A stretch of 64,000 bases of DNA from Porphyridium purpureum (taxonomy: Eukaryota; Rhodophyta; Bangiophyceae; Porphyridiales; Porphyridiaceae), in the NCBI GenBank assembly GCA_008690995.1, contig VRMN01000012.1, positions 124,001-188,000 on the forward strand, read 5' to 3'. The position numbers and the translations under genes are program-made. Positions 1-53,110 of the stretch are shown piece by piece (positions within the stretch are counted from its first letter, which is position 1; the number at the start of each line of letters is the position of its first letter). The notes under the pieces are model-generated. The model was not told the DNA's origin. It made no database searches and saw only the letters and a program-made list of their open reading frames with translations.

Positions 1-505
1 CGGTGAACTGGGCGTCGAGGGTGAGGATTACATCCGGCTGTATGAGATGGGCATGCTGCGAACGTTCGCAGACCTTGCCTCCACTCTGAGCTGCGAAGTG
101 TCAACTCCAACGCCAACGCCAACTCCAACGTCAACATCAATGCCAACTCCAACACCGGAATACTGTTGCTCGCCAGATGACGAAGGCGCAGTCTGCAAGA
201 CGGCGTCGGACATGCCAGAAGAAAGTTCGGACAACTCGGACAGCGACTATGAGACCATGAGAATGATTACGAGCATGCGCAGCCACAGCAAGCACAGCCG
301 CGGCCGCGGTCGTGGCCATTACTGCCGTTGCAGCTCATCCTCCGACTCGGAGGAAGAGGTGCCGTGCTGCCCATGCACATGCCCGAAACCGCCGCCAAAG
401 CCTCCTGTGTGTGGAAATGATGGAAGCGACAGTAGCAGTACAAGCAGCGAGAGCAGCAGTGGAAGCGAGTCGGAATCTAACGACAGAAGGGCGAAGAGGA
501 AGTAG
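1..505 (+). CDS. Secreted repeat-linker glycoprotein-like, array copy 0 (partial, 3' end)
   Basis: This is the C-terminal end of a gene that starts left of the window; the reading frame enters at base 2. It shows the end of the propeller-like domain (RTFADLAS), a short Thr-Pro linker, the [13 protein letters not shown] cysteine cluster, a Ser/Asp-rich stretch, an Arg-Gly run (SRGRGRGHYC), the [11 protein letters not shown] cysteine motif and a Ser/Glu-rich tail ending in RRAKRK. Bases 1-386 are nearly identical to copy 3 (10,559-10,944, about six differences), while the rest is closer to copy 1, so the copy looks mosaic. Function is unknown; the plan suggests an extracellular matrix or wall protein. 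Confidence 0.85.
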   Translation, partial: GELGVEGEDYIRLYEMGMLRTFADLASTLSCEVSTPTPTPTPTSTSMPTPTPEYCCSPDDEGAVCKTASDMPEESSDNSDSDYETMRMITSMRSHSKHSRGRGRGHYCRCSSSSDSEEEVPCCPCTCPKPPPKPPVCGNDGSDSSSTSSESSSGSESESNDRRAKRK

Positions 506-578
506 GCAAGAGAACCCGGACAGCAACTCAAAACAAAATTTACCTGCACAAGAGAAATGCATGGTTGTGTGATTGAAG

Positions 579-584
579 AATAAA
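579..584 (+). terminator. Candidate polyadenylation signal AATAAA, copy 0
   Basis: AATAAA lies 74 bases after the stop codon of copy 0, a normal distance for a short 3' UTR. The surrounding sequence is shared with the 3' flanks of copies 1 and 3. Confidence 0.5.
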
Positions 585-2375
585 TTAAAACAAATTCGAT
601 GTGCCCCTGCAGAGGCTTGCATTCCCGGATACTGGAGTGCATTTCTGGAGTGAAGCTTTCCGAGTCGTTACCTTATTCTCCTTCAACGTTCCCGCCTAGA
701 CACGTACTGCGTCGGATGAGAGCATTCTGAAAGCAGAGGCAGGGCGCTTTTTGCACATTAGTTTCACGTGCAGAATTCCTTCGCGAGACATTCATTGGAC
801 AGAGCACGACACAAAAGACATCGCGCCGTCCACGCACGAAGTGTGAGACTGTAGAGGCTCATATGAGATGGCCGCCGCCATACTAAAGCAGCCAAGCATG
901 TTGCGCGTTCGGCGCAAGAACACACATCACCCCACCAACCCGCTTCAGGCGCAACGACAAAACGTGTAGTAAACGATGCATTCTTGTTGTAAACTGTGAA
1001 GGAATGATCGGGGAGTTGTCTAGACTTCGTCTCTACCTGACGACACGTTTACTCGTAATCTCCTATTCCTCTTCCTTGCGTCTTCTCTGGTGAGGAAGCT
1101 AACCAGGCGACGACCGTCGGGTGGGGTTGCTTTTATACACGCCGCCAGCCTGGCGTGCACTTCTGCAGCGCAGGGCGACGAGGTGGGTCTTGCCACCCAG
1201 CCACAGGCCCTGCACGACCCGACCGTTGCGAGGATGGCTCCGAAACCACCATATGCGCGCGCATGGGCCCGCGCGGCACTCGACCGTTAGGTCGCCACTT
1301 CGAAACGGTCCGACTGTTTTACAGGTAAACGATTTCCGCCGTGAAGCAGCGTGATTTGTGAATGGCCTGGCTGTACACACACTGTACTTCCACAGAACCC
1401 CCACCAACGCCGCCCCGCGCTGCTCGGTCGTCCAGCGCGCCGCGCCGTTCCAGCACGATGGGCGTGGTGGCCGCGTAGGCCGACGGCCCTGCTTCTTCGG
1501 ACCCAAACTGCCTGGTCCTTCATCCGTGACCCCGCCGCATTCCACACGCGTGCCTGTGCGCCGCGCGGGGACCCCCCTTGGCGCTGGCGCTGGCTCCACC
1601 ACACGCACCAAACCTCTGCGGCAAACCGCTGCGGCGCGCTCGATCCGCTGACCCCGCGCGAGCTGTACCCCCACCGCTGTCCGCATTACACCTCCAATTC
1701 AAAGGTCTTCGACTGTACCTTATGCTTTGGTGGGGTGGTGCTGACACTGTACCGCAGACGGTGCTTTTGCGAGTTGGGTGCCGCGTGTGCGAGTGTGTGG
1801 AACTAACGCGCCAGGTGGTCGCACGTGCGAAGCGCCGCGGTGCGACGCTAATTTTACTAACGCTTCTGGGCATGTGCTCCCTGCGTGGCGTGTCTCCATT
1901 GAAAAGGAAGGACGGTCGAATTCAGACGCAACGTTGCTGCACGTGAACGCCGCTCAGAATGGACGGTGGACGAGCGGCTACAGGGCACGCAAAGTATCCG
2001 CGCGCTGTTCCACACAGAGGGAGGATTGCCGACCGCAGAGAAGGGCATCGCAGAGTGGTTTCCAGGCGCATCAGAAAGTGCGGCGCGAATGTGTGGCACT
2101 TGGGTCGGTGGCCGGTTTGAAACGTAGCTGGAGGCCAGCGCGACGGGACACGCAGAGAAATGTCGCGCTTTTCGATGAGATAATCCACCGGATTCTGCCA
2201 CTGCGCAGAGATGTTGGCAACTCGGGAGACGCGTAAGGCCGGTGTTCCTGCGGCTCGTGGCATGAGCCGAGGAATGTCCTATCTTCAGATTCGACGCTGT
2301 GGAACGTAGCACCGACGTCATACCATTGAGCGCGCGTGCGAGTGTAATGGTCCTGTTTCTGCTACTTTGCGCGCC

Positions 2376-2382
2376 TATATAA
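2376..2382 (+). promoter_or_regulatory. TATA box of array copy 1
   Basis: TATATAA in the context GCGCC-TATATAA-ACGCG, about 225 bases upstream of the chosen ATG. Copies 2, 3 and 4 have a TATA-like box at a comparable position, which supports a real core promoter. Confidence 0.65.
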
Positions 2383-2604
2383 ACGCGCGTACACGCAGCT
2401 TCATTTACTTTGAATCCGAGCAGCGTCGTGGGATGGTGGAAAGGTATTTGAGGGAAGACGAGCAGACAAGAAGTTACGGCGAAAAGTTTGGATCGTAACA
2501 ATCGTACCATCGTCTCAAGGAGGATAGGGAGGTAAGGTGACGGGGCGGAAGACGCTAATCTAGGATACTAGCAGCAGAGGCCCGTGCAGCATTTACACAA
2601 CACC

Positions 2605-4329
2605 ATGGGCACTCGCAAGCATGGTCTGTTGGCCTTGGGCCTGCTGCTCCTTTGCGCCCTCGTTGTTCTCGTCCGAGGCACCCAGGCGCAGGCAAGTGCA
2701 GGTATTGTTTACGGCATTGAGCGTGACACCGTGGAGAAGAACGTTTTCGCCATTGACTTTTCCGCCGGCTTGGGGTTTGAGCCCACCATCACGCTGGTCG
2801 CAAACATGACAAAGGCCGCGGCCGAGGATCCAAATTTTCCTCAGCAGTGTATTGGATACGTGAATGGGGTGACGCGCACCGGGCCCCTGTTCGAGTTTTC
2901 ACCGAACGGACTAGGGTATGACGGTGACTCCCGTCTGTACTTCGCCGTGTTTGACCGATATGGCATGACGGCGTCACGTCTGTGTTTCTACTCGTTCGAG
3001 ACGGACTCGTTCGGTTTTGCTGCTACACTTGGCGAGACTGTGACAGGTGCCGCCTTTGACCCGTACACCTACCAGTACGTGTGGATCGACGAAGGCGCTC
3101 CGCAATCCGAGGGTAGCATTCTGATGCTCCAGTTCGCGCGGCTGGACAGGACCACGGGCCAGATTGTGGAGCGAGTGACCAACACCATGTTCCGCGATGT
3201 GACGACGGACCCGGACGCGCCAGCTGCCGAGGTGCCGTTCACTTACCGTGGCGGAGATATGGCAATAGACGCCAACGGCGTATTGTACGTCAGCAGCGTC
3301 GGAACGGGTGGCGGCTTCAAACACTTCTTTTCCATCGACTTGGGCTATGTTGACGGGAACATCACCACAACTCCCGCGATGCCGTACGCGTACCGACTCA
3401 TCCACGCAGATTCAATGGACTCAGGTCAGCTAAGTACTTTGACTGGGTTTGCAACTGCAGATCAGCTGGCATTTGACGCGGAGGGAAGATTGATCAGCCA
3501 AGACAGCGAGCGAGGCATTTTTAGTGTCGTGGACACGGAGACCGGTGCGAACGGTGAGCTGGGCGTTGAGGGTGTCGACTTCGTCAGGCTCTTCCAGGCG
3601 GGCGTGTTGCGAACGTTTGCCGATCTTGCCTCATCTCTGGTCTTTGAAGCGCCGACACCGACGCCATCGCCATCGCCGACGCCGACGCCAGTGCCAACGG
3701 AATCACCCACGCCGACCCCATCGCCCTCGCCGACGCCGACGCCAGTGCCAACGGAATCGCCGACGCCGACGCCAGTGCCAACGGAATCACCCACGCCAGT
3801 GCCAACGGAATCACCCACGCCGTCGCCGTCGCCAGTGCCGACGGAATCGCCGACGCCGACGCCAATGCCGACGGAATCGCCGACGCCGACGCCAATGCCG
3901 ACGGAATCGCCGACGGAATCGCCGACGGAATCGCCGACGCCGACGCCAGTGCCAACGGCATCGCCAATGCCAACACCTGCGCCAGAGTTTTGCTGCTCAC
4001 CAGATGACGAAGGGGCAGTCTGCAATATGGCTACGAACATGCCCAAGAGGATGGTGGACAGTGACCGCAAGAGCAAGGAAATGTTTATGACCACACGCAG
4101 GCATAGTGATCACGCCGGAGGCCGCAGCCACAGCTTCAGCTGCGACTGCCAGTGTCGTTTAGACACCGACTCGGAGGAAGAGGAGCCTTGCTGCCCATGC
4201 ACGTGCCCGAAGCCACCGCCAAAGCCTCCTGTGTGTGGAAATGATGGAAGCGATAGTAACGACGATAACAGCGACTGCAGCAGCGGAAGTGAGTTGGAAT
4301 CTAACGACAGGTTGGGGGAGATGAACTAG
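2605..4329 (+). CDS. Secreted propeller-like / Pro-rich linker / Cys-rich protein, array copy 1
   Basis: 574 residues, intronless. The ATG at 2,605 is chosen over an in-frame GTG at 2,584 because it has a strong CACCATGGG context and aligns with the paralogue starts. Residues 1-30 form a signal peptide (Leu-rich core, cleavage likely after AQA). Residues 31-345 show repeated blade-like stretches ([36 protein letters not shown]), which suggests a beta-propeller. An NMT N-glycosylation site is conserved. About residues 348-458 form a linker of TPTP, SPSP and PTESPTP units. The tail has [12 protein letters not shown] (C463/C464), charged residues and [17 protein letters not shown] do not recognise a named family. 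A wall or mucilage glycoprotein is an inference from the domain plan. Confidence 0.9.
3650..3965 (+). repeat. In-frame coding repeat, [11 protein letters not shown] type (copy 1)
   Basis: Imperfect repeats of short units built on CCGACGCCGACGCCA and GTGCCAACGGAATC encode Thr-Pro and PTESP motifs. All units are multiples of three and keep the frame. The Thr/Ser-Pro composition is like hydroxyproline-rich linkers of algal wall proteins. Confidence 0.85.
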
Positions 4330-6160
4330 ATAAGAGTATTCAGGCGACAAGGCCGAATATATTTTACCTGCAGAAGAAAAATGCATGGTTGTGTGATTGA
4401 GGAGTAAGTAAAAATTTCCGTGTGCCCTTGCAGAAACTTGCACACTCTGAGACTGGAGTGCATTTCTGGAATGAAGCTTTACGCACCGTCACCTTATCCT
4501 CTTTCAACGTTCTCGCCCGGATACGTACTGTATCCGGTGAGAGCGTTCCAAATTAAAGGCAGGGCGCTTTCACACATTGGTCTCACGCACAGGATTCCTT
4601 CGCGAGACGTTCATTGAATAGGGCACGACAGAAAAGACTTCACACCATCCACGCACGAAGTGCGTAACTAGAGAGTCTCATCTGAGATAGGCGCGGCCAG
4701 ACTAAAGCAGCCAAGCATGTTGCGCGCTCGGCGCAAAGACACACACCTTCATCCCACCCACTCGCATCGCGCCTGTTTCGTGCGCAACCACAAAACACAT
4801 CGTAAAAGATGCATTCCTACTATAAACGATTTCCGCACTCAAGCAGCGTGATTTGTACATGGGCCTAACGGTTGTTGAACTGTACTTTCACCGAACTCCC
4901 CCCTTGTTCTGCTGGTTCGTCGAAACGCGCCGCGTCCTTCCAGCACCATGGCCGCGGTGGCCGCTTTCCCGCTTTGCGCGCACGCACGCTCGCGCGGTGC
5001 TTTGCCCAACCCAAAAAGCACCGGTCTCGCTAATCAGTGGCACCACCGCCCCCGTTTCCTGCATACGAGCCCGCGCGCCGCGCGTAACCCTGGCGCTCCA
5101 GCTCCTCCTCCGCCACGCGCCCCGCTGTGGCTGCGGCGCGCGCTCAATCCACTGTCCAGCTGTACCCTACTTGACTAGCACTACTGTACACATGCCTTTT
5201 CCCAGTGACTTCCATTGTGACTTCCACTGTACCTTATGCTTGGTGTGTGGTGCTGACACTGTACTGCAAGCAGGGTCGTGGTTTTGGCGAGTTGGGCGGT
5301 GCGGCGTGCGCGTGTGCAGTGGGAAGCAGCGCGCCACGTGGTGGAGCGCGCGGCGACCGCGCGCGCGCCTCGCAGATGTGAGGTGCGCCGCGGCGCGACG
5401 CAAAGTTCGCTCACGCTTCTCGGGTGTGTACTCCCCGCGTCGCGTGTCTCCCGAAAAGGAAGGAATGGAGGGAATGATGGTCGAATTCAAACGTAAAATC
5501 TCAACTCTTGAACGAAGCCCGGAATGCACGCCCGAAAAACGGATGCAGGGGGAATGGGGAAATACGTGCGCCTGACCACACAGGAGGGTTAGAGACAGCA
5601 GAGAAGAGCCGTTTTCCGACGCATCAGAAACTGCGACGCGGGTGCGCGGCACACTTGGGTCAGCGGTCGGTTTGAAGGGTTGCTCGGAATGAGCGCGCCG
5701 GGACACGCTGAGAAATGTCGCGCTTTGCGATGAGCTGATCCAACGGATCATGGCGCGGCGCAGACTTTCTAGTAACGCGGGAACGGCTGAAAGCCGGCGT
5801 TCCTGCGGCTTGTGGCGTGAATCGAAGGCTGTCCTATCTCCAGATGCGACGCTGTGGAGCGTGCCGCCGGCTTTACACTATCGAGTGCGGGTGCGAGTGC
5901 ACTGCTCCTGTATTTGCTACATCGTGCGCCTATTTAAGGGCGCACAGACCCATGGTCGTCGTCGCAAGCCAAAGGTAAGCTGCAAATCGAGGAGAAGGAG
6001 GACTGCGGTCAGAAGGGGAGATAGGGAGTTGGGGCCGCAAGTCAGAGGGCGAAACAGCTGCGCGGCTGCCTGAAGGAGAAAAGGAAAGTAGGGGCGAAAG
6101 GTGGGTTGCGCGAGAATAGGAATCCAGCAGCAGAGGCTCGGTTAGGATTGACACAGTACC
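4330..6160. other. Intergenic spacer of the tandem array, between copies 1 and 2
   Basis: No gene is supported. The left half is homologous to the spacers after copies 0 and 3, and the right half (from about 5,220) to the region upstream of copy 1, including the block TATGCTT...GTGCTGACACTGTAC. ACTGTACYTT motifs lie at 4,879 and 5,226. The 5' leader before copy 2 carries AGCAGCAGAGG, also found in the leader of copy 1. Confidence 0.7.
5931..5937 (+). promoter_or_regulatory. TATA-like box of array copy 2
   Basis: TATTTAA in the context GTGCGCC-TATTTAA-GGGCGC, aligned with the GCGCC-TATATAA of copy 1, about 230 bases before the ATG. Confidence 0.55.
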
Positions 6161-7939
6161 ATGGACACTCGCAAGCACGGTGTGCTGGCTTCGGGCCTAC
6201 TGCTACTTTGCGTCCTCCATGTCCTCGTTCGAGGCGCCCAGGCCCAGGCAAGTGCAGGTATAGTCTACGGCATTGAGCGCGACACCGTGGAGAAGAACGT
6301 TTTCGCCATTGACTTCTCCGCCGGCTTGGGCATTGAGCCCAGCATCACGCTGGTCGCGAACATGACAAAGGCCGCGGCGGAGGATCCGGATTTCCCGCAG
6401 CAATGCATCGGATACGTGAACGGGGTGACGCGCACGGGGGCTCTGTATGAATTCTCACCAAACGGACTGGCGTACGACGGCGACTCCCGGCTGTACTTCG
6501 CTGCGTTTGACCGATTTGGCATGACGGCATCACGACTGTGTTTCTACTCGTTCGAGACGGACTCGTTCGGGTTAGCCGCCAGCCTTGGTGAAACTGTGAC
6601 GGCTGCCGCGTTTGACCCGAACACATACCAGTACGTGTGGATCGACCAGGGCGCCCTGCAATCTGAGGGCGGTATTCTGGTCCTCCAGTTCGCGCGGCTG
6701 GACAGGACGACGGGCCAGATTATGGAGCGAGTGACTAACACTCTGTTCCGCGATGTGACGACGGACCCGAATGCCCCAGCTGCCGAGTTGCCGTTCACTT
6801 ATCGTGGCGGCGATTTGGCTATTGACGCCACTGGTATGTTGTACGGCAGCAGCGTCGGAACGGGCGGAGGCTTCAAGTACTTCTTCTCCATCGACTTGGA
6901 CTATGCTGCCGGAGACCTCGGCGCAATTCCCGGAACGGCGTACGCGTACCGACTCATCCACGCAGATCCAGCGGACTCGACGCAGGTGAGCACTCTGACC
7001 GGGTTTGCAACGGCAGATCAGCTGGCATTTGATGCGGATGGGAGACTGATCAGCCAAGACAGCGAGCGAGGCATCTTTAGTGTCGTGGACACGGAGACCG
7101 GTGCGAACGGTGAGCTGGGCGTCGAGGGTGTGGATTTCGTCAGGCTGTTCCAGGCGGGCGTGCTGCGCACTTTTTCGGACCTTGCCTCGGCTTTGGTCTT
7201 TGAAGCGCCGACACCAACGCCGTCGCCATCTCCGTCGCCATCACCATCGCCGTCACCATCGCCATCACCATCGCCGTCGCCATCGCCGTCGCCATCGCCG
7301 TCACCGTCGCCGTCGCCATCGCCGTCACCGTCACCGTCACCGTCACCGTCACCGTCACCGTCACCGTCACCGTCACCGTCACCGTCACCGTCACCGTCAC
7401 CGTCACCGTCACCGTCGCCATCGCCATCGCCGTCGCCGTCGCCGTCGCCGACGCCGACGCCGACGCCGACGCCAGTGCCGACGCCAGTGCCAGAGTTCTG
7501 CTGCTCCGCAGACGACGAAGGTGCTGTGTGCGACGTTGCTACGCAGGCGCCGAAAAAGAGTTCGGACAGTGACGATGAGAGCTCGGACAGTGACGATGGG
7601 AGCTCGGACAGTGATGGTGGGAGCCATAGAATGCTAACGAGCGTTCGCCACGGCCGCGGTCGAGGTCGTGGCTTTGGTCACGGTCGCGGTGGTCGTTCAA
7701 GCTCAGGCTCCGAGTCTGACGCAGAGTCGACAGAAGGACCATGCTGCCCGTGCACGTGCTCGAAGCCGCCGCCAAAGGCTCCTGTGTGTGGAAATGTAGG
7801 AAGCGACAGCAGCGACGGAAGCGACAGCAGCGACGAAAGCGACAGTAGCGACGGCAGCCGCAAGAAGGGCAAGACGGGCAAGAGTGGCAAGAGTGGTAGC
7901 GACTCGGAGTCTAACGGTAGTGGCTCGGAGAGTCACTAG
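6161..7939 (+). CDS. Secreted propeller-like / Ser-Pro linker / Cys-rich protein, array copy 2
   Basis: 592 residues, intronless. The start is the first ATG in a good context (GTACCATGG). It has a signal peptide at 1-30, a propeller-like domain at about 31-345 nearly identical to copy 1, then about 39 uninterrupted Ser-Pro dipeptides and a short TPTP run (about 348-444). Next come [12 protein letters not shown], a Ser/Asp block ([21 protein letters not shown]), an Arg-Gly block ([16 protein letters not shown]), [12 protein letters not shown] and a tail of SDSSDGSD and KTGKSGKSG units. The long pure Ser-Pro run sets it apart from the other copies, which use mixed Thr-Pro. It is the longest copy. 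Function is unknown; secretion and heavy O-glycosylation of the linker are inferred. Confidence 0.9.
7206..7490 (+). repeat. Hexanucleotide minisatellite coding (Ser-Pro)n in copy 2
   Basis: A run of six-base units (CCGTCA, CCGTCG, CCATCG) encodes about 39 Ser-Pro pairs. The central part (about 7,320-7,415) is almost pure CCGTCA, which indicates recent slippage or unequal exchange. Such arrays are expected to vary in length between strains and to collapse in assemblies. Confidence 0.95.
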
Positions 7940-9361
7940 ATGGATCAGTTAAACGCCACGCTTTCGAAAATGAACCTGCAACAGGTGAAAAAACTGGAAA
8001 CGTGAATGAGAGGTAAAGAAATAGGTATTCCGTTGGAGAAATCACATTCTTTGGGCCCGGAGCGCTCTCTAGACTGAATGGAACCGCGTGTCAAAGTCGG
8101 CTTCTTTTCAATATAGTATGCGTGCAACTATTGTACATGCTGTCGCCTGTCCTCATCTATGCTGTCGTTGAAGGTAGACTCTTTCCGAATTGTGGCCTCC
8201 CTTCCTATTTCGATTTGTCTGCCAGAGCAGCCGCGCCATCTGATGAGTGGGTGCAGAGACAACCCAAAAAAGAGAGCAGATCACTTTTGCACAATCATGC
8301 CACACACTGCGCTTCCTCGGCGAGACGTCGACCAGGGCCGCGCATCATGATTACGCGCCCGTCACGCCAGAAATACATGGCACGAGTCCAGTTGGGCGTG
8401 TGCACCGTTTAGAAGCAGCTGACCAAGTTGCGCATTTGGCGAAAGGACTCTACTCATTCATGCCGCTCGCAGCTTGCGGCACGCACGCAGACGCATCCGG
8501 CATGGTCCTTCTGCTTGCTCAGGGCCAACGCCGCTTGAGAAACTCAACCGCCGCTTCCCTCAGCCACATTCATATCAAAGTGGCGTTATTTGTATAGGAA
8601 AGACGTACAGTCCCGGCACGTGCTCCACGTGCCGCGGGTGCGTGGCACATCGCGGAATCGCGAGGTCGCGAGCGCGCTTGTTGGCGAGCGCGCGTGCGTG
8701 AGTCGCAGCGCGTGGAACGTCAACAGCACAACACCAGCACGGCGGTGCCGACGATGGAATGAACCGCACGCACACGTACGAGCACCAGGAGAAAGGAGAA
8801 ATGACAGAGCGCCACATTCCCGTGGCGCGCTTGTGCGGCGACGTGTCTGTGTGAGCCGCATCGGTCACCAAAAAGGCAGACGGAGGCATGTGCAAACGAG
8901 CACGCGGCAAAAAAAATCCAGAAACGGAAATATCTTTGTGCTTACTCCTTGCGACACGTGGAACTGCGTGAATTGAGCACATTCCAGGGACGCCGGAAGC
9001 GCCACGACGGGCGCCGCTCGGTGCCTGTGCGTTTTGTGTAAGGCATGCGCTGTTGTTGTGGATTGCGTGGCGCGCTTGGGAGAAAAGGGGTCATTGGTGT
9101 GAACACGCTGCAGTCAGAGGACACTCAGAGCAGTGGAATGTGTAGAACTCCGGCGGATACTTGGGCTGGTCGCGTGGTAGTAGGCGAACGGCGCGAGACT
9201 TGTTGGCAACGTGGGAATGGTTGACTGGCGATCTTCCAGGCAAATGCGATGAATTTAGCCCACGCATCTATCCGCAGTTTGTACTGTGGAACGTTCCAAG
9301 ATCATGAGTGTCGTGGCACACGTTGCAATCATCTGGAGCCTGTTTCGCGCCGCGCATCGGG

Positions 9362-9368
9362 TATATAA
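9362..9368 (+). promoter_or_regulatory. TATA box of array copy 3
   Basis: TATATAA in CGGG-TATATAA-TGGGG, about 240 bases upstream of the ATG, matching the layout of copies 1 and 4. Confidence 0.65.
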
Positions 9369-9445
9369 TGGGGACCGCGCGCGTGGATTAGTACAAAAAG
9401 TCGAAGAGTGCGGAACAGAGAGCAGAGTCGACAAGGAGCAGAAGC

Positions 9446-9509
9446 AGAAGAAGAAGAAGAAGAAGAAGAAGAAGAAGAAGAAGAAGAAGAAGAAGAAGAA
9501 GAAGAAGAA
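9446..9509 (+). repeat. (AAG)n microsatellite in the copy 3 leader
   Basis: About 21 AAG/AGA trinucleotides lie between the TATA box and the ATG. In one frame they would add a run of glutamates to the N-terminus, but that would bury the signal peptide, so they are taken as 5' UTR. Confidence 0.95.
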
Positions 9510-9605
9510 TTCGGGCACACACAGGAAAGGACAGACTCTGTGGTTCAGGGATTGAAGCAGCAAGCGAAGCAAAAGTGGAGGCTCCGGAAGCATTTAGTCG
9601 ACAGA

Positions 9606-11087
9606 ATGGACAATGGCAAGCGTCGTGCAATGGCTTCGTGCTTGCTCCTCCTTTGTGTACTGCATGCCCTCGTCCGAAGCACGCAGGCTCTGTCGAATGT
9701 AGGTATTGTTTATGCCATTGAGCGCGACAACATGCAAAAGAATATATTTGCGCTGGACTTTTCTGTCGGCGTAGGCATGGAGCAGAGTACCACGCTGGTC
9801 GCAAACATGACACAGGCCGCGGCTGAGGATCCAGATGGGTTCCCGATGGATTGCTTTGGATACGAAAATGGAGTGACGCGCACAGGGCCGTTGTACGAAT
9901 TTTCACCGAATGGACTGGCGTACGATGGCGACTCGCGCCTGTATTTCGTCGCATTCGACCAATATGGAATGACGACATCACGCCTGTGCTTCTACTCGAT
10001 TGCAACCGATACGTTCGAGTTTGCTGCCAACCTTGGCGAGCCTGTGGTGGGTGCCGCGTTTGACTCAAAGACGTATCAATATGTGTGGATTGATCAAGGC
10101 GAGCAGCAAAACATGGGCGGCATTATGGTCCTGCAGTTCGCGCGGCTGGACAGAACGACGGGCCAGATCATGGAGCGGGAGACTACTACCATGTTCCGCA
10201 ACGTGACAACGAACCCGAATGCGCCGGCCGCCGAATTGCCGTTCACATTCCGCGGCGGCGATATGGCAATTGACTGCAACGGCATGCTGTATGGCAGCAG
10301 CGTCGGGACGGGGGGTGGCTTCAAATATTTCTTTACCATCGACTTGAACTATGATGCGGGAGATCTTGGCGAAACTCCTGAAATTGTGTACGCGTACCGA
10401 CTCATCCATGCAGACGTACCTGACGACCCCAGTCAGGTGAGCACATTGACCGGGTTTGCAACTGCAGATCAGCTGGCATTTGACATGGACGGGAGATTGA
10501 TCAGCCAAGACAGCGAGCAAGGCGTCTTCAGTGTCGTAGATATTGCGACCGGTGCGAACGGTGAACTGGGCGTCGAGGGTGAGGATTACATCCGGCTGTA
10601 TGAGATGGGCATGCTGCGAACGTTCGCAGACCTTGCCTCCTCTCTGAGCTGCGAAGTGCCAACTCCAACGCCAACGCCAACTCCAACGTCAACATCAATG
10701 CCAACTCCAACACCGGAATACTGTTGCTCGCCAGATGACGAAGGCGCAGTCTGCAAGACGGCGTCGGACATGCCAGAAGAAAGTTCGGACAACTCGGACA
10801 GCGACTATGAGACCATGAGAATGATTACGAGCATGCGCAGCCAAAGCAAGCACAGCCGCGGCCGCGGCCGTGGCCATTACTGCCGTTGCAGCTCATCCTC
10901 CGACTCGGACGAAGAGGTGCCATGCTGCCCATGCACATGCCCGACACCGCCACCGACTGCTCCAGTATGTGGAAATGTAGGAAGCGACGGTAGCGCCAAA
11001 GGCAGCGGCAAGCGCGGCGGCAAGCGCAACGACAACCGCAGTGGAAGCAAGTCGAAATCTGGCGGGAGAGTGGTGAAGAGGAAGTAG
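9606..11087 (+). CDS. Secreted propeller-like / Thr-Pro linker / Cys-rich protein, array copy 3
   Basis: 493 residues, intronless. The frame is open for 66 codons upstream, but ATG 9,606 is preferred: it places the signal peptide (Leu/Val-rich core ending TQA) at the N-terminus and aligns with the paralogues. The upstream stretch is microsatellite-encoded poly-Glu. The propeller-like domain is more diverged from copies 1 and 2 than those are from each other (VYAIERDNMQKN, FYSIATDTFEF) and resembles copy 4. The linker is short ([18 protein letters not shown]). The tail has [12 protein letters not shown], an RGRGRGHYC run, CCPCTCPTPPPTAPVC and a Lys/Arg-rich end, more basic than copies 0-2. Its linker and charged region are almost identical to copy 0. 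Confidence 0.9.
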   Translation: MDNGKRRAMASCLLLLCVLHALVRSTQALSNVGIVYAIERDNMQKNIFALDFSVGVGMEQSTTLVANMTQAAAEDPDGFPMDCFGYENGVTRTGPLYEFSPNGLAYDGDSRLYFVAFDQYGMTTSRLCFYSIATDTFEFAANLGEPVVGAAFDSKTYQYVWIDQGEQQNMGGIMVLQFARLDRTTGQIMERETTTMFRNVTTNPNAPAAELPFTFRGGDMAIDCNGMLYGSSVGTGGGFKYFFTIDLNYDAGDLGETPEIVYAYRLIHADVPDDPSQVSTLTGFATADQLAFDMDGRLISQDSEQGVFSVVDIATGANGELGVEGEDYIRLYEMGMLRTFADLASSLSCEVPTPTPTPTPTSTSMPTPTPEYCCSPDDEGAVCKTASDMPEESSDNSDSDYETMRMITSMRSQSKHSRGRGRGHYCRCSSSSDSDEEVPCCPCTCPTPPPTAPVCGNVGSDGSAKGSGKRGGKRNDNRSGSKSKSGGRVVKRK

Positions 11088-11159
11088 ATGAAAAATCCGG
11101 ATAGCAAGTCAGAACATATTTTACCTGTGAAAGAAAAGTGCATGATTGTGTGATTGAAA

Positions 11160-11165
11160 AATAAA
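11160..11165 (+). terminator. Candidate polyadenylation signal AATAAA, copy 3
   Basis: AATAAA 73 bases after the stop codon, at the same relative position as in copy 0. Confidence 0.5.
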
Positions 11166-12103
11166 TAGAAGAAAAAAATTAGATGTAGCCTTGCAAAACT
11201 TGCATATTCTCCGACTGGAGTATGTTTCTAGAGTGAAGCTTTCCGAATCGTTGCCTTGTATTCCCTTTCGACGTTCCCGACCGGATACGTACTGTATCCG
11301 ATGAGAACGCTCCGAAAGTAAAGGCAGGGCACTTTTGCGCATTCATTTCACGCGCGTGACTTGTTCGCGAAACATTCATTGAGCAGAGCACGGCAGAAAA
11401 GACATCAAACCATTCACGCACGAAGTGCGAAACTAGAGAGTCTCGTATGAGTTAGCCGTCAAGCATGTTTCGCGTTCGGCGCAAGGACACGCATTCATCC
11501 TGCAGCCCACTTCGAGCCCGCTTTGAGCCCGCTTCGACCCGCGCTTCGGGCGCAACGACAAAACGCACAGTAAAATATGCATTCTTATTATAAACTATTT
11601 CCGCAGTAAAGCGGCGTGATTTGTGAAGCCTGTCTGAGTAAACTGTACTTTCACAGAACCTCCTTCCGGAGTTTCGCAGCGCGCTGTGTGAATTCTGGTG
11701 ACGTGCGCTGAATTCCGCATGTGATGGTAGTCTGGGAGAGCGCGGCCGTGTGCCGTGCTGCTCGTCCGGCCTTCGCTCCACAGGTCGGATGGATGGCACG
11801 TGCCACGCCGTGTTGTGTCTGCAACCGGTGACAATTCCGGGCGTGGCGCGCCGCGTCTTACACTAGTGTCAGCACGCTGTGACGTCGGGCGTGTGCTCCG
11901 GTCACGGAAAGGAGCGTGAATGTTCAGTGGCGCGGGCGCCGCATCCTAGGCGAGATGAGACTGTTTCAATGAGGATGGTCGAGCCCCTTTGATGAATTTA
12001 CCAGCGTTAATTTCGCCACTTCTGGCTTCGCGGGTACCATTGCCAGCGCAAGAAGAAATGGAGAATGCACTCCGACAGACCCGGTTCGGGTCGCGCAACA
12101 GGG

Positions 12104-12110
12104 TATATAA
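12104..12110 (+). promoter_or_regulatory. TATA box of array copy 4
   Basis: TATATAA in CAGGG-TATATAA-CAGGGC, about 175 bases before the ATG of copy 4. Confidence 0.65.
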
Positions 12111-12284
12111 CAGGGCGCAGACGAGTTCGAAGACCAAGCACGAGGTAAGGCAGTACAGAGCAGAGACAAGAAGGTGCAGAAGAAGAGGAGCAAGGAGTGT
12201 CAAGAAGACAAGCACACGCAGACAAAGTCTGAGAGAGTGATTTGGAACAAGTGGGAGAAGCGGGAAAAAGTCGGGTCAGCCAGT

Positions 12285-14174
12285 ATGAAGACGAACAAGC
12301 ATGGCATGATACCTCTCTTCTTACTCGTTCTCTGCGCAATGTCATTCCGTGCGCAGTGCACGCATGCTCTGCAGAATGCAGGTGTTGTATACGGAATTGA
12401 GCGCAACGACGTGCAAAAGAATATTTTCGCAGTGGACTTTTCGGCCGGCGCAGGCATGGCACCAAGTGTGAGCCTGGTTGCAAACATGACGCGGGCCGCG
12501 ACCAACGACCCGGTAGGGTTTCCGATGCAGTGCTTTGGATATGTGAACGGGGTGACAGGCACAGGACCCCTGTACGAGTTTTCGCCGAATGGATTAGCTT
12601 ACGACGCTGAGTCGCGCCTGTATTTCGTCGCGTTTGACCAGTACGGCATGACAGCCTCGCGACTGTGCTTCTATTCAATCGCGACTGATTCGTTTGTATT
12701 CGCTGCACAACTTGGCGAACCAGTGATGGGTGCCGCCTTTGACCCAAACTCATACCAATATGTATGGATCGAACAGGGTCAGAAGCAGTCTGAAGGGGGT
12801 ATTCTGGTCCTCCAGTTCGCGCGGCTGGACAGAACGACGGGCCAGATTATGGAGCAAGTGACCAACACCATGTTCCGCAATGTGACGACGGATCCGAACG
12901 CACCAGCTGCCGAGCTCCCTTTCACTTTCCGCGGTGGCGATATGGCAATTGCTTGCAACGGGATGATGTATGCCAGCAGCGTCGGGACGGGCGGCGGCTT
13001 CAAATATTTCTTTTCGATCAACCTGAACTATAGTGCAGAAGCTTCAGGAGCCGCTCAAGGAATGCCATACGAGTACCGACTCATCCACGCATGTCAGAAA
13101 GTTCACTCTTCCAAGCCACTGTACTAAGCGATGCACCTCGCATCGCTTCTCCGGGCTGTCGACAGGCACGGGATCATGCCGAGCCTCGCAAGATAGTTCT
13201 CACGCAGGATCTCGTCCCACGCCAGCCCGGCGTACAGCGGTCACCTCGTGCGAAGTATATAAAGTGGACTCCGTCTCCCGCAAGCTAATGACGGGAGAAA
13301 AAGGAGGACCAGAGATGAGCGTAGTGAAGAACATTTAGTTAAAAAGGGTTTGTTGTCCTTATAAGCAGCAAGGGATTCTGAAGATCACCTCCTGCAGACC
13401 GACCTCACGTCCGTGGTGGCGGGCCCACTGCCTGACGTGTAGCAGTTCTTCCCTACGCCTTCGCGGTCTCTCCGGGGCACAAAACCCCGTAAAACCGGTT
13501 TTTGTGACAACGCAGACCCGAGTGATGATCCTAGCCAGGTGAGCACATTGACCGGGTTTGCGACCGCAGATCAGTTGGCGTTTGACATGATGGAAAGATT
13601 GATCAGCCAAGACAGCGAGCGAGGCATCTTTAGTGTCGTAGACATGGCGACCGGTGCGAACGGTGAGCTGGGCGTTGAGGGTGTGGATTTCGTCCGACTT
13701 TTCGAGATGGGTATGCTGCGCACTTTTGCAGACCTTGCCTCGTCCCTAGACTGCGACGCGCGGACGCCAATTCCAACACCGACTCCGCTGCTGACCCCAA
13801 CGCCAACTCCAACTCCCGAGTTTTGCTGCTCTCCACATGACGAAGGTGCCGTGTGCGACGTGGTACCACACATACCGGAAGAGAGCTCGGACAGCGACGA
13901 TGAGAGCCAGAGATTGCTTCCTAGCACCCGCCACCACCGCAGCCACGGCCGAAGCCGAGGCCGTGGTCATGGCCACGGCTGCCATTCAAGCTCAAGCTCC
14001 GACTCCGAGGCAGAATCGACAGAGATGCCGTGCTGCCCGTGCATATGCCCGAGACCGCCACCAACTGCTCCAGTGTGTGGAAATGTAGGAAGCGACAGCA
14101 GCGGCAAGAGTGGGAAGAGTGGCAGCAGTGGTAGCGATTCGGAGTCCAAGGGTAGCGGCTCGGACAGCGAGTAG
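12285..14174 (+). pseudogene. Array copy 4, split by a solo LTR
   Basis: The gene has the full family plan. ATG 12,285 starts a signal peptide and propeller-like domain up to 13,091; from 13,515 the domain resumes ([15 protein letters not shown]), followed by a short Thr-Pro linker, FCCSPHDEGAVC, Ser/Asp and Arg-Gly stretches, CCPCICPRPPP and a Ser/Gly tail, stop at 14,174. Between the halves sits a 418-base solo LTR with a 5-base target duplication. The added 423 bases are a multiple of three, but a stop is met 12 codons after the junction, so the product would lack the end of the propeller-like domain and the whole tail. The halves show no other obvious damage, so the insertion is probably recent. 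Without it the protein would have been about 488 residues. Confidence 0.85.
13092..13509 (+). repeat. Solo LTR inserted in array copy 4
   Basis: 418 bases that begin TGTCAGAAAG and end TTTTTGTGACA, the TG...CA ends with short inverted repeats typical of LTRs. They are flanked by the 5-base target duplication ACGCA (13,087-13,091 and 13,510-13,514). A TATATAA box lies near the middle in the + direction. A second copy of the same length occurs at 52,693-53,110 with about seven differences. No internal retroelement genes are present, as expected after LTR-LTR recombination. The superfamily of the parent element cannot be told from the LTR alone. Confidence 0.93.
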
Positions 14175-14223
14175 AGTATGCACTTTCACACAGCGAGTAG
14201 AGTATGCACTTTCACACAGCGAG
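14165..14223 (+). repeat. 26-base tandem duplication over the copy 4 stop codon
   Basis: The unit CAGCGAGTAGAGTATGCACT plus six bases occurs twice and begins a third time. The first unit contains the TAG stop, so the duplication extends the 3' UTR only. Confidence 0.85.
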
Positions 14224-14682
14224 TCAGTGATAATGCCCTTGAAAACGAGAATTACAGGGAAGCACGATTGAATAAAGACTGAAGAGGTTCGACATCGACC
14301 ACGTGGACAACGCGTATCATCCATTCGACTATACTCGATTCGCCGCAGGCTTTCTTGACGCACCATTTATCCCGCCTACAGTTGAATTGGGTGTGCTGAC
14401 CTTGCATGAATGGTTGCCAAATAACTTGTACCATTTGGTCTATGCGTCACCTTCTGCCGTTGCCTCATGCAGCGTCTGGGCTTTTAGCGTAATGTGTGCG
14501 GATGATATAGCAGTACCGTGCCAGCATCTGCCACTTGGCAGTGCTATGTAGATTGATGAACAGCGTAGCAACCATGCAGAGAACGTTATGACTTGGTCTG
14601 ACTTTAGGGAACATTTCGAAGAATATCATTGTCTTTTACTTGAATGATAACCCGAACTTGCCACTATGCGCCTGCCGCTAAA
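14175..14682. other. Spacer between the array and the LEA-like gene
   Basis: It holds the 3' end of copy 4 and the 3' flank of the convergent LEA-like gene. An 82-codon ORF at 14,303 shows no recognisable feature and is not called. Confidence 0.6.
14271..14276 (+). terminator. Candidate polyadenylation signal AATAAA, copy 4
   Basis: AATAAA 97 bases after the stop codon of copy 4. Confidence 0.5.
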
Positions 14683-15102
14683 CTACTTGGTTACCTCATC
14701 CTTGGCATCCTCCATGTTGCTGCCGACCTTTTTGGCAGTGTCCTTCACGTTCTCTTTGGCGTCTTTAAACGCGTCCTTTGTCTTGTTCGCCGCATCTTTA
14801 GCATAGTCACCCACATTTTCAGCTGTGTCCGTGACTTTGTCCTTCGAATTTTCGTACGCGTCCTTGGCAGCGTCGGACCCATCACTCGCAATATCGTGCG
14901 TCTTGTCCTTAACATTCTCGGCAGCATCACCCACCGCCGACTTGGTCTTATCGTAGTCCTTGTCGAGCGATGAGTTCATCATTACCTGCGCGCGCGCGCG
15001 CGGCGCGACCGTCATCACGCCTGCGACGCGAGAAACCTGAAGAGTACGACCCAGCTGGCCCGCGGCGACACCGCCGAACATCATCCCATTCACAAACGCC
15101 AT
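14683..15102 (-). CDS. LEA-like stress protein with organelle-type N-terminus
   Basis: 139 residues from ATG 15,102; an in-frame GTG seven codons upstream is not preferred. Residues 1-40 (MAFVNGMMFGGVAAGQ..., rich in Ala/Val/Arg, no acids) look like a transit peptide; an early Phe is typical of red-algal plastid targeting. Residues 45-139 are hydrophilic repeats of about 11 residues built on Lys, Asp, Ala and Thr (KTKSAVGDAAENVKDK, DAKENVKDTAKK), the pattern of group 3 LEA and related amphipathic-helix proteins that protect membranes and proteins during desiccation or salt stress. There are no Trp or Cys residues in the repeat part. It is convergent with the array. Plastid rather than mitochondrial targeting is only a suggestion. 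Confidence 0.75.
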   Translation of the reverse strand: MAFVNGMMFGGVAAGQLGRTLQVSRVAGVMTVAPRARAQVMMNSSLDKDYDKTKSAVGDAAENVKDKTHDIASDGSDAAKDAYENSKDKVTDTAENVGDYAKDAANKTKDAFKDAKENVKDTAKKVGSNMEDAKDEVTK

Positions 15103-15217
15103 TCTGACTGTTAAGATTTTCACTGCTCAATTCTTTTGTCGATTCTGTTATCCGAGAACTTGCTTCCTACCTCTGTACAACTTTCCGACTTATCCTGTCA
15201 CCATTCTTCTCATGCGC

Positions 15218-15225
15218 TATTTATA
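15218..15225 (-). promoter_or_regulatory. TATA box of the LEA-like gene
   Basis: On the minus strand this reads TATAAATA, 116 bases upstream of the ATG, in a GC-rich setting (GAGTATAAATAGCGC). Confidence 0.6.
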
Positions 15226-16467
15226 CTCAGCGAGCGCCTTGTACAGAAACCAGCGGGCCAGCCACTCTGGAGCCCAGCGCGGGAGATTCCGGAACACGTG
15301 GAATGCTGGGTCTCCCGCGCGTCACATCCTCTGTTTTCCTTCAATCCTCTTCCATTCCCATCTCGAGACGCTCAGCCCGTGCCGCATCACGTGGAATACC
15401 CCCAGAGGTTAATATCTACTTATCTCTCCTTCCACGACGCAGCAGCTCCGCATTCCCACGACCGACTCATAGTGGCACGGTCCCATGGCATTCGATCCTG
15501 TTGGCAACAATCCCCGCTCTATCCAACTTGGCAACTTTGGCTATCCGTGAGCGGGCAGATGATAATACACCGTACTCCTCCAGCAGGCAGCGCGTCGCGT
15601 TGGAATCAGGAAACAGCGATCATCTCAGCTCACGTCTCGCTGCTTTCTTCTCTCGGCTCCGCGGCTCCGCTCCACCTGGAGCACAGCTCAAGTGGCGACT
15701 GTACCTCTCGCGACATCGAATTCTCGCTTCGCGTTCCGCGCTCCACGCTGCTGCCTCACCGCCACAGCCGACAGCCTGCCCGCCAGATTCGCACGCACCG
15801 ACATGCCCGGAACGCCGTCGTTTCCACGCCCACGTCTCAAGTCCGTTCTCCCGCTTCACGCTCCTTGGTGCGTTCTCGTAGACGGCAACACAAACTTCGA
15901 AGCGCCGATTTACTCCGGGACGAGTTCAGGCGATGAAGAAGAAGACAAAAGAAGAAAACACCTTTGCAGGAGAAGAAGGAAACATCTATCGGCCGTTTAT
16001 CATGTCTATGGCCACGTCGAACCTCCATTGACTGATTCCTGTCGTCAAAGTGCTCGACGCCAGGGGATAATGGATCGACGGTGACTACATCCGCTGTGCG
16101 ACAATCACAGCACGGTCTGCAATGCCACTCTACGTCGTGCCTCAATGTGCCGCCGTCACCAGCGTATAATCTTCCTGAGTCAGAATGATATGCACGTCCG
16201 ACTGCACGACGTCATGCAAGTGGTCCACGTTGTACTGGTAGCCGGGCTCTGCAAAGACTTGTGCGCACGTGCCGAGCTCCGAGCTTGCCATTCAAATAGG
16301 AGCAGCGCCCGCCTCTACGGTCATCTCCGAGAACATGGTCTTGCGTGCCACATGGTATGTCGTTGAGACCTACCACGTGCCGCAACTCGCGCACATCATC
16401 GCCGGCGTGCACTTTCTTCAGGGCAGATGCGCCTATTGACTTGGCTTCGATGTAAAGGGACCTAGGT

Positions 16468-17133
16468 ATGGCTGCGGCTGTAGATGTTGATGAGGTTGCC
16501 AACGTTGGCATCGGCTTGCCAAAACCATCAAGGTATGGCCATTCAGCAAGCTTTAGCGATTGGATAGAGCTATCATCTGGCTCAATCATACCGGAGCTTG
16601 TGTTCAGAGCTTGGGCCCCAACCTGCTAGCCCCATCTCAGGCATAGAAATCGATTCGGTACAATGAGCGGAATGGAACTCGGTGGCTTGAAAGCGCCACA
16701 CCGTATTGCTGGAAACGCCACACTTCACCCTGACCTGAACAGAGATGGCGTTCTCGACGAGGTCGCCAATTCAAGGCGAGCATTCGGTTTCGCGACGCCC
16801 TTGTAACGTTTTTCCGTGTGCAGACCACTTTCGGGATTTGCAGTCTCACAGATCCCCACATGCGACTCGCATCAGATCGCAAGCTCAACCTTGACACAAT
16901 CCATTCAGACTTCGGCACTGACGGTCGCTGGGGTCGGCCTGCGGCTAACGATGGAGCTCAAGCAGCTCTGGTTGCCAGCGTCGACGAGCATAGGTGCAGT
17001 ACCCGTGCAATGGGCATGTAATGAGGTCACCGCTTGCACGATGTACGGTTCACCCAGCATACGATTCAATCCGCACGCCGCGATCGTCACGTCGATGGAC
17101 AAAACCACAGAAAGTGAGGCCGTATCATCCTGA
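16468..17133 (+). pseudogene. Possible decayed coding debris with a Ca-binding-like motif
   Basis: Several short open stretches on the plus strand look protein-like. One of 47 codons (16,663-16,806) contains HPDLNRDGVLDEV, similar to the D-x-N-x-D-G calcium loops of EF-hand, dockerin and FG-GAP repeats. Another stretch (16,816-17,133) has no motif I recognise. There is no single open frame, no promoter and no paralogue in the window. This could be a broken gene or chance; confidence is low. Confidence 0.2.
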
Positions 17134-52392: not shown

Positions 52393-52692
52393 GCTCAGTC
52401 ACACTGCACCAGCCCATTCCTGACGCGAATCTCGCGTCCACGTTCCACGCAACCACCGACTCGACTCTCACCCCACAAAACCCCGCCCACCACCACGCCG
52501 TTCTCCGCAATCAGCACGTGCGCACTGCAACACGCATGAAACTATATCCGTGCGCGCGTGCGCTTCCACGTCTCGCCGCATCCACGTCGTTCTCGGCTCC
52601 CATGCGCGTTGTTCTCCGCTCCAAGCCCCGCGTCTCTCCCGTTCTGACTCGAAAATTGTTCTCGGCTGCACGTGCTGCGTGTGAGTTCCATG

Positions 52693-53110
52693 TGTCACAA
52701 AAACCGGTTTTACGGGGTTTTGTGCCCCGGAGAGACCGCGAAGGCGTAGGGAAGAACTGCTACACGTCAGGCAGTGGGCCCGCCACCACGGACGTGAGGT
52801 CGGTCTGCAGGAGGTGATCTTCAGAATCCCTTGCTGCTTATAAGGACAACAAACCCTTCTTAACTAAATGTTCTTCACTACGCTCATCTCTGGTCCTCCT
52901 TTTTCTCCCGTCATTAGCTTGCGGGAGACGGAGTCCACTTTATATACTTCGCACGAGGTGACCGCTGTACGCCGGGCTGGCGTGGGACGAGATCTTGCAT
53001 GAGAACGATCTTGCGAGGCTCGGCATAATCCCGTGCCTGTCGACAGCCCGGAGAAGCGATGCGAGGTGCATCTCTTAGTGCAGTGGCTTGGAAGAGTGAA
53101 CTTTCTGACA
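52693..53110 (-). repeat. Solo LTR upstream of the CRAL-TRIO gene
   Basis: 418 bases, the reverse complement of the LTR in array copy 4 with about seven differences (about 98% identical). It has TG...CA ends and is flanked by the 5-base target duplication CCATG (52,688-52,692 and 53,111-53,115). Its TATATAA box points left, toward the CRAL-TRIO start codon. Confidence 0.93.

What the first reader, a model, noticed from the sequence alone, without database searches (positions are those of the whole stretch)
1..14174. Tandem family of secreted, modular, charge-banded proteins without a recognised name
Seen: five same-strand copies with a shared signal peptide, propeller-like domain, Pro-rich linker, Ser/Asp and Arg-Gly stretches and two Cys clusters (CCSxDDEGAVC, CCPCTC). 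The gene-to-gene period is about 3-4 kb, and flanks are duplicated too. Known: algal wall proteins such as pherophorins combine globular domains with (Ser-Pro)n linkers. Inference: these are extracellular matrix or mucilage proteins, with the linker O-glycosylated. The combination of propeller, polyproline and alternating acidic and Arg-Gly blocks is not one I know.
Basis: partly seen in the sequence, partly recalled or inferred. Interest (0 to 1): 0.75.

Follow-up and report, generated by a model that had tools for sequence, protein, structure and literature searches.

The report
Secreted propeller-protein gene array, probably algal
Five side-by-side copies of one gene, one of them broken by a jumping element, encode secreted proteins made of a probable beta-propeller, a proline-rich stalk and a charged cysteine-bearing tail, probably matrix glycoproteins of a microalga and possibly relatives of a long-known but structurally unsolved cell-wall glycoprotein.

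Summary
Five + strand paralogues lie at 2-14174. Copy 1 is cut by the window edge. Copies 2, 3 and 4 are intact (574, 592, 493 aa). Copy 5 is broken by a 418-bp insert with TG...CA ends and a 5-bp target duplication. A second copy of that insert (411 of 418 bases identical, its own 5-bp duplication) lies at 52693-53110, so it is a solo LTR. The signal peptide is seen in four copies.

The globular domain is under purifying selection (dN/dS 0.14-0.22). It matched no Pfam or NCBIfam family above cut-off, no PDB sequence, and nothing credible in the collections searched. The tail keeps eight invariant cysteines and has no predicted structure.

Best reading: extracellular-matrix (mucilage) glycoproteins, with the propeller as binding head, the Ser/Thr-Pro stalk as spacer, and the tail as cross-linker. 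Organism and function are inferred. Mature copies 2 and 3 (58.1 and 57.8 kDa) coincide with the ~58 kDa polypeptide reported for the Porphyridium 66-kDa cell-wall glycoprotein, a lead that one sequence comparison would settle.

The parts
2..505 (+). Copy 1, 3' part only (end of domain, 20-residue linker, Cys/charged tail); the gene starts outside the window
   Evidence: open frame to the window edge; tail at 158-502
2605..4329 (+). Copy 2, 574 aa: signal peptide, propeller-like domain, 112-residue Ser/Thr-Pro linker (3649-3984), tail (3985-4326)
6161..7939 (+). Copy 3, 592 aa: signal peptide, propeller-like domain (6242-7207 as used), 96-residue linker, largely (Ser-Pro)n (7205-7492), tail (7493-7936)
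9606..11087 (+). Copy 4, 493 aa: signal peptide, propeller-like domain, 20-residue linker (10656-10715), tail (10716-11084)
   Evidence: ATG at 9606 chosen by likeness to the other copies, not the upstream GTG of the ORF list
12285..14174 (+). Copy 5, interrupted: 12285-13091 codes for the signal peptide and most of the domain; 13515-14174 for the last part of the domain, linker and tail
13092..13509 (.). 418-bp solo LTR inside copy 5 (TGTCA...TGACA ends, TATATAAA inside)
13087..13091 (.). Target-site duplication ACGCA, left copy (right copy 13510-13514)
52693..53110 (-). Second copy of the same 418-bp LTR, 98.3% identical, with its own target duplication CCATG (52688-52692 and 53111-53115)
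2..365 (+). Tract of copy 1 that is 95-100% identical to copy 4 (about 10560-10923) in 60-base windows, then falls to 71-85%: recent gene conversion or unequal exchange; right edge approximate
539..994 (.). Duplicated 3' flank: matches 4363-4827 (78%); 513-995 matches 11094-11596 (71%)
1707..2388 (.). Duplicated 5' flank of copy 2: matches 5221-5943 upstream of copy 3 (69%)

Best explanation
A tandem family of secreted extracellular-matrix glycoproteins of an intron-poor eukaryote, probably a unicellular red alga. Shown by sequence: paralogy, signal-peptide-like N-terminus, purifying selection, modular layout, eight invariant tail cysteines. Supported by prediction: a single beta-propeller head (six blades likeliest) and a stalk and tail without predicted structure. 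Inferred: the head binds a component of the cell's extracellular polysaccharide. The Ser/Thr-Pro stalk is O-glycosylated and holds the head away from the tail. The tail, with acidic and possibly phosphorylated Ser/Asp blocks, basic Arg/His/Lys blocks and eight cysteines, anchors and cross-links the protein into the sulfated gel through disulfides and charge. Copies differ mainly in stalk length (20, 96 or 112 residues) and tail charge, so the array would supply cross-linkers of different reach. Tandem duplication and gene conversion keep the copies alike, and one copy has been lost to a solo LTR.
For: Paralogy and layout. Hydrophobic N-terminal run with an A/T-x-A site in 4 of 4 N-termini, and no hydrophobic C-terminus. 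Domain dN/dS 0.14-0.22 in the 9 comparisons that could be made of 10 (copy 5's two parts share no columns). Tail dN/dS 0.24-0.69 in 10 comparisons, the 0.69 being the converted pair copy 1/copy 4 at dS 0.13. Two models with different query copies: Foldseek gives 34 PDB matches at E<=0.001 for model 1 and 408 for model 2, best 1.3e-07, with target-normalised TM 0.54-0.56 to SAKe6, KLHL12 kelch and Pizza6, six-bladed by name or recall. No strand or helix after residue 318 of mature copy 4, pLDDT 25-39 there. N-glycosylation sequons in the three intact copies: 2, 2 and 3. In Porphyridium the polysaccharide carries non-covalently bound proteins, notably a 66-kDa glycoprotein with a ~58-kDa polypeptide (PMC4626698, passages). 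Mature copies 2 and 3 compute to 58.1 and 57.8 kDa, cut at a site I chose.
Against: Model confidence is low (mean pLDDT 42 and 47, pTM 0.44 and 0.47; in each job the other four models scored lower). Query-normalised TM does not exceed 0.37 in either list and many rmsd values are above 5. Since the head itself scores low, low pLDDT of the tail is weak proof of disorder. A blade-against-blade profile test gave no repeat signal above shuffled controls. No homologue was found, so no function can be carried over. Organism, secretion, glycosylation, cysteine pairing and binding partner are untested. The S/T-x-x-D/E counts have no control. A paper on P. [quoted passage not shown]
Confidence: 0.5

Rival explanations
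1. Secreted propeller enzyme (a hydrolase, lyase or lactonase-like enzyme) acting on the cell's own polysaccharide, with the stalk and tail serving only to hold it in the gel.
For: Several near folds are enzymes: 2qe8 'putative hydrolase' (best hit), GH43 (3zxj) and luciferin-regenerating enzyme (5d9b); oligogalacturonate lyase (3pe7). The 66-kDa Porphyridium glycoprotein was itself proposed to act in synthesis or modification of the polysaccharide (PMC4626698, passage).
Against: No enzyme family matched above its cut-off. The same fold lists hold many non-enzymes (LDLR, kelch, NHL, WD). The low-confidence model does not allow an active-site search, and none was made.
Confidence: 0.2
2. Surface adhesin or recognition protein (cell-cell, mating, or the determinant recognised by grazers), with the diverged copies as variants.
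For: Head on a stalk is a common adhesin layout. Stalk length varies and the copies show a gene-conversion tract. The glycoprotein moiety of the Porphyridium wall is reported as a biorecognition site (PMC4626698, passage, citing Ucko 1999, not read).
Against: No hydrophobic C-terminus that would suggest a membrane or GPI anchor. The domain is under purifying, not diversifying, selection overall.
Confidence: 0.15
3. Mineral- or metal-binding secreted protein: the acidic, possibly phosphorylated Ser/Asp tail and Cys clusters bind calcium or metal ions, and the propeller is only a carrier.
For: Eight invariant tail cysteines and 6-12 S/T-x-x-D/E sites per tail; mature pI 4.2-4.4 for copies 2-4.
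Against: CC and CxC spacing also suits disulfides. Basic blocks lie between the acidic ones and the tail of copy 4 has net charge +3, which does not suit a dedicated cation binder.
Confidence: 0.1

Closest known systems
[quoted passage not shown] (Shrestha 2004; Levy-Ontman 2011; neither paper seen), known here from passages of PMC4626698, PMC3564169 and PMC3958852
   Same: Polypeptide reported as about 58 kDa against 58.1 and 57.8 kDa for mature copies 2 and 3; N-glycosylated; said to lack similarity to any protein in public databases; structural likeness to superfamilies that include sialidases (a propeller fold, recalled)
   Different: About 8 kDa of glycan as high-mannose N-glycans of 8-9 mannoses would need roughly four sites (my estimate), while copies 2 and 3 have two sequons each. 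The window's species is not known.
Pherophorins and other volvocalean hydroxyproline-rich glycoproteins (recalled)
   Same: Secreted, multigene, globular part joined to a (Ser/Thr-Pro)n rod
   Different: No pherophorin domain reported by Pfam; head is propeller-like; the second module is a charged Cys tail, not a second globular domain
Extracellular or periplasmic propellers and other propellers: Ava_4197 (2qe8), TolB, LDLR/LRP6, NHL, kelch
   Same: Among the best fold matches of the two models
   Different: 3-17% identity over the listed rows; no sequence-level match to any PDB chain; none of these, as far as I recall, carries a (Ser-Pro)n stalk with a charged Cys tail

Membership tests
Beta-propeller fold | Circular array of four-stranded sheets | tested here: inconclusive
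   19 strands of 3+ residues in the domain of model 2 and Foldseek lists whose shown rows are almost all propellers, but pLDDT, pTM and query-normalised TM are low; suggestive only
Beta-propeller fold | Internal blade repeats detectable in sequence | tested here: not met
   hhalign between five presumed blades, 10 pairs, was no better than shuffled columns; many true propellers also fail this (recalled), so it lowers little
Named families in Pfam/NCBIfam, propeller families (kelch, NHL, YWTD, WD40, SMP-30, GH43) included | Profile match above the curated cut-off | tested here: not met
   No family above cut-off; BamE and Kazal_2 below theirs. The second part of copy 5 was not scanned; NCBIfam was run on copies 2-4 only
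Pherophorins | Pherophorin domain | tested here: not met
   Pfam scans of the copies reported none; that Pfam holds such a model is recalled
Pherophorins / hydroxyproline-rich glycoproteins | Ser/Thr-Pro rod | tested here: met
   96- and 112-residue linkers in copies 3 and 2 with 48 and 46 Pro; 20 residues in the other three
Pherophorins / hydroxyproline-rich glycoproteins | Hydroxylation and O-glycosylation of the rod | not testable with these tools
   needs protein chemistry
Porphyridium 66-kDa cell-wall glycoprotein | Sequence identity to its cDNA | not testable with these tools
   the 2011 JBC paper is not held and no eukaryotic sequence collection is on hand
Porphyridium 66-kDa cell-wall glycoprotein | Polypeptide of about 58 kDa | tested here: met
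   58.1 and 57.8 kDa for mature copies 2 and 3, but 50.2 for copy 4; one number is a weak criterion
Porphyridium 66-kDa cell-wall glycoprotein | Enough N-glycosylation sites for about 8 kDa of glycan | tested here: inconclusive
   2, 2 and 3 sequons in copies 2, 3 and 4 against roughly four needed by my estimate; O-glycans could add mass
Solo LTR | TG...CA ends, 5-bp target duplication, further copies | tested here: met
   two copies of exactly 418 bp, each with its own 5-bp duplication

The most novel reading that the evidence does not exclude
The array encodes the long-known but structurally unclassified 66-kDa glycoprotein of the Porphyridium sulfated polysaccharide, or its close paralogues. 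That protein would then be a propeller lectin on a Ser-Pro stalk with a polyampholyte, disulfide-forming tail that cross-links the sulfated gel, a wall-protein architecture not described in any other lineage that I know.
Probability: 0.12. Interest if true: 0.65.

Novelty: new variant of a known kind. Interest (0 to 1): 0.4.

Why it matters
Functional data on the proteins of red-microalgal extracellular polymers are described as scarce (PMC8465309, passage), although the polysaccharide is widely studied. A secreted family with its own architecture gives concrete candidates for what holds or modifies that gel. If one copy proves to be the 66-kDa glycoprotein, its gene family and likely fold would be settled by one sequence comparison. 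The array also shows tandem duplication, gene conversion and LTR damage in one place.

Tried and rejected
Known family: rejected, no match above cut-off in Pfam or NCBIfam. Weak BamE (E 0.015 and 0.0098) and Kazal_2 (E 0.013) hits are below their cut-offs and ignored. The NCBIfam hits (for example S-layer, internalin, ClfB), all far below cut-off, are ignored too.

Bacterial, viral or plasmid relatives: genome contigs 57 pattern stretches, 0 confirmed; viral contigs 3 stretches, 0 confirmed; phages and plasmids by tblastn, no match. A degenerate motif scan of genome contigs gave one hit, L001, whose frame holds a stop inside the motif: a chance hit. A profile search of 149 genomes of one bacterial phylum gave 1 weak hit (E 0.0074, 16.8 bits, L003), and of L001's own genome 1 hit at E 0.064. 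Neither was followed up. No eukaryotic sequence collection could be searched.

Pseudogene array: rejected for copies 2-4 by open frames and dN/dS 0.15-0.22 among them; accepted for copy 5. Whether the insert in copy 5 is spliced out as an intron was not tested by any search; it is unlikely if the host has only 235 introns (PMC10866757, passage).

Internal blade repeats by profile comparison: no signal. Organism: the window's RPN1 is closest in the PDB to 8amz (E 1.3e-266, spinach by recall), ahead of chains that I take to be animal and yeast, a weak plant/algal lean. Three window ORFs without a family had no PDB match at E<=0.01. Extra copies beyond 14300: none by tblastn at E<=1e-3.

Full report
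What is there. The first 14.2 kb of the window hold five same-strand members of one gene family: copy 1 at 2-505 (5' part outside the window), copy 2 at 2605-4329, copy 3 at 6161-7939, copy 4 at 9606-11087 and copy 5 at 12285-14174. No further member was found beyond 14300 (tblastn, E<=1e-3). Domain identity to copy 3 is 87% (copy 2), 76% (copy 4) and 75/79% (copy 5's two parts). Pairwise dS of 0.46-1.07 with dN/dS of 0.14-0.22 in nine of ten comparisons, the tenth having no shared columns, shows that the domain has been held by purifying selection after fairly old duplications.

Copy 5 is broken. Between RLIHA and the rest of the domain lies an insert of 418 bp (13092-13509) beginning TGTCA and ending TGACA, flanked on both sides by ACGCA. 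A second copy of exactly 418 bp with 7 differences lies at 52693-53110 on the other strand, flanked on both sides by CCATG. Two copies of identical extent, each with its own 5-bp duplication and TG...CA ends, identify a solo LTR. The frame runs through 11 of its codons and then stops. LTR elements are reported as the most abundant repeats of P. purpureum, 8% of the genome, with a relatively recent expansion (PMC6811547, passage).

The array is a mosaic. Copy 1 is 95-100% identical to copy 4 in 60-base windows up to about position 365, then falls to 71-85%, while its 3' flank is closer to that of copy 2 (78%) than to that of copy 4 (71%). Recent gene conversion or unequal exchange is the simplest reading. 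Flank duplication is real but partial: 3' flanks of copies 1, 2 and 4, and 5' flanks of copies 2 and 3, match; 7940-9605 and 14175-16500 have no blastn match in the window at E<=1e-4.

Protein anatomy. All four visible N-termini have a basic start, a hydrophobic run and a site ending in A/T-x-A. Cut there by my own choice (no predictor was on hand), copies 2, 3 and 4 lose 28 residues and have mature masses of 58.1, 57.8 and 50.2 kDa and pI 4.2-4.4. There is no hydrophobic C-terminus. The domain of about 320 residues is followed by a Ser/Thr-Pro linker (112 residues in copy 2, 96 in copy 3, 20 in copies 1, 4 and 5) and a tail of 114-148 residues. In the tail alignment of five copies 8 cysteine columns are invariant among 38 invariant columns of 153. 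The tail evolves faster than the domain (dN/dS 0.24-0.69).

Fold. Sequence searches gave nothing: Pfam on copies 1-4 and the first part of copy 5, NCBIfam on copies 2-4, PDB by single sequence and by profile. AlphaFold2 with only 5 and 6 window sequences gave weak models: copy 3 domain, mean pLDDT 42, pTM 0.44; mature copy 4, mean pLDDT 47, pTM 0.47, with 67 residues at 70-90. The Foldseek neighbours are nonetheless consistent. For the second, 50 of 1225 were shown; all 50 are ones I recognise, or in two cases (8itf_B, 9n6z_LT) take, to be propellers, with target-normalised TM of 0.54-0.56 for the six-bladed SAKe6, KLHL12 and Pizza6. That recognition is from memory. Query-normalised TM never exceeds 0.37; in the second list the 466-residue query includes the unstructured tail. 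The viral library gave kelch-like and WD40 names among more mixed matches. A blade-to-blade profile test was negative. I put the propeller fold at about 0.8 and six blades at about 0.6.

Host. Window GC is 54.3% (mean); a 1068-aa RPN1 and other conserved genes are single ORFs. P. purpureum is reported with 55.5% GC and only 235 spliceosomal introns (PMC10866757, passages). This fits, but does not identify the species.

How it may work. The best-supported reading is a matrix glycoprotein: secreted head, glycosylated spacer, charged and disulfide-forming tail. Shown: paralogy, selection, signal-peptide-like N-terminus, modules. Predicted: fold. Inferred: glycan binding, O-glycosylation, cross-linking. 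The literature describes a 66-kDa glycoprotein non-covalently bound to the Porphyridium polysaccharide, with a polypeptide of about 58 kDa, no similarity to proteins in public databases, and structural likeness to superfamilies that include sialidases (PMC4626698, passages). The mass agrees with mature copies 2 and 3 (not copy 4), but their two sequons each are fewer than 8 kDa of large N-glycans would suggest. I give this identity a probability of 0.12.

Three literature searches that combined red-algal, propeller, proline-rich or pherophorin terms listed 4, 0 and 4 papers, none of which by title or start of abstract describes such a family; none of these was opened. They cover open-access papers only, so absence from print is not shown.

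Noticed in passing
13092-13509 and 52693-53110: Two 418-bp copies of one solo LTR, 98.3% identical, each with its own 5-bp target duplication.
   Followed up: yes
2-365 and about 10560-10923: Near-identity of copies 1 and 4 over a short tract, then a sharp drop: gene conversion or unequal exchange.
   Followed up: yes
14164-14224: A 26-bp unit repeated 2.3 times with 100% match, spanning the stop codon of copy 5.
   Followed up: no
9440-9509: (AGA)n run of about 23 units upstream of copy 4; it makes the mechanical ORF look as if it had a poly-Glu N-terminus.
   Followed up: no
27785-28813 and 36111-37169, minus strand: Two open Tc1/mariner-like transposase frames (HTH_Tnp_Tc3_2 and DDE_3).
   Followed up: no
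14683-15123, minus strand: 146-aa ORF of charged amphipathic repeats with an Apolipoprotein match below its cut-off; looks like an LEA-type stress protein (recalled).
   Followed up: no
44050-44145 and 54869-54939: Near-perfect minisatellites: 13-bp unit x 7.4 (97% match) and 11-bp unit x 6.5 (98% match).
   Followed up: no
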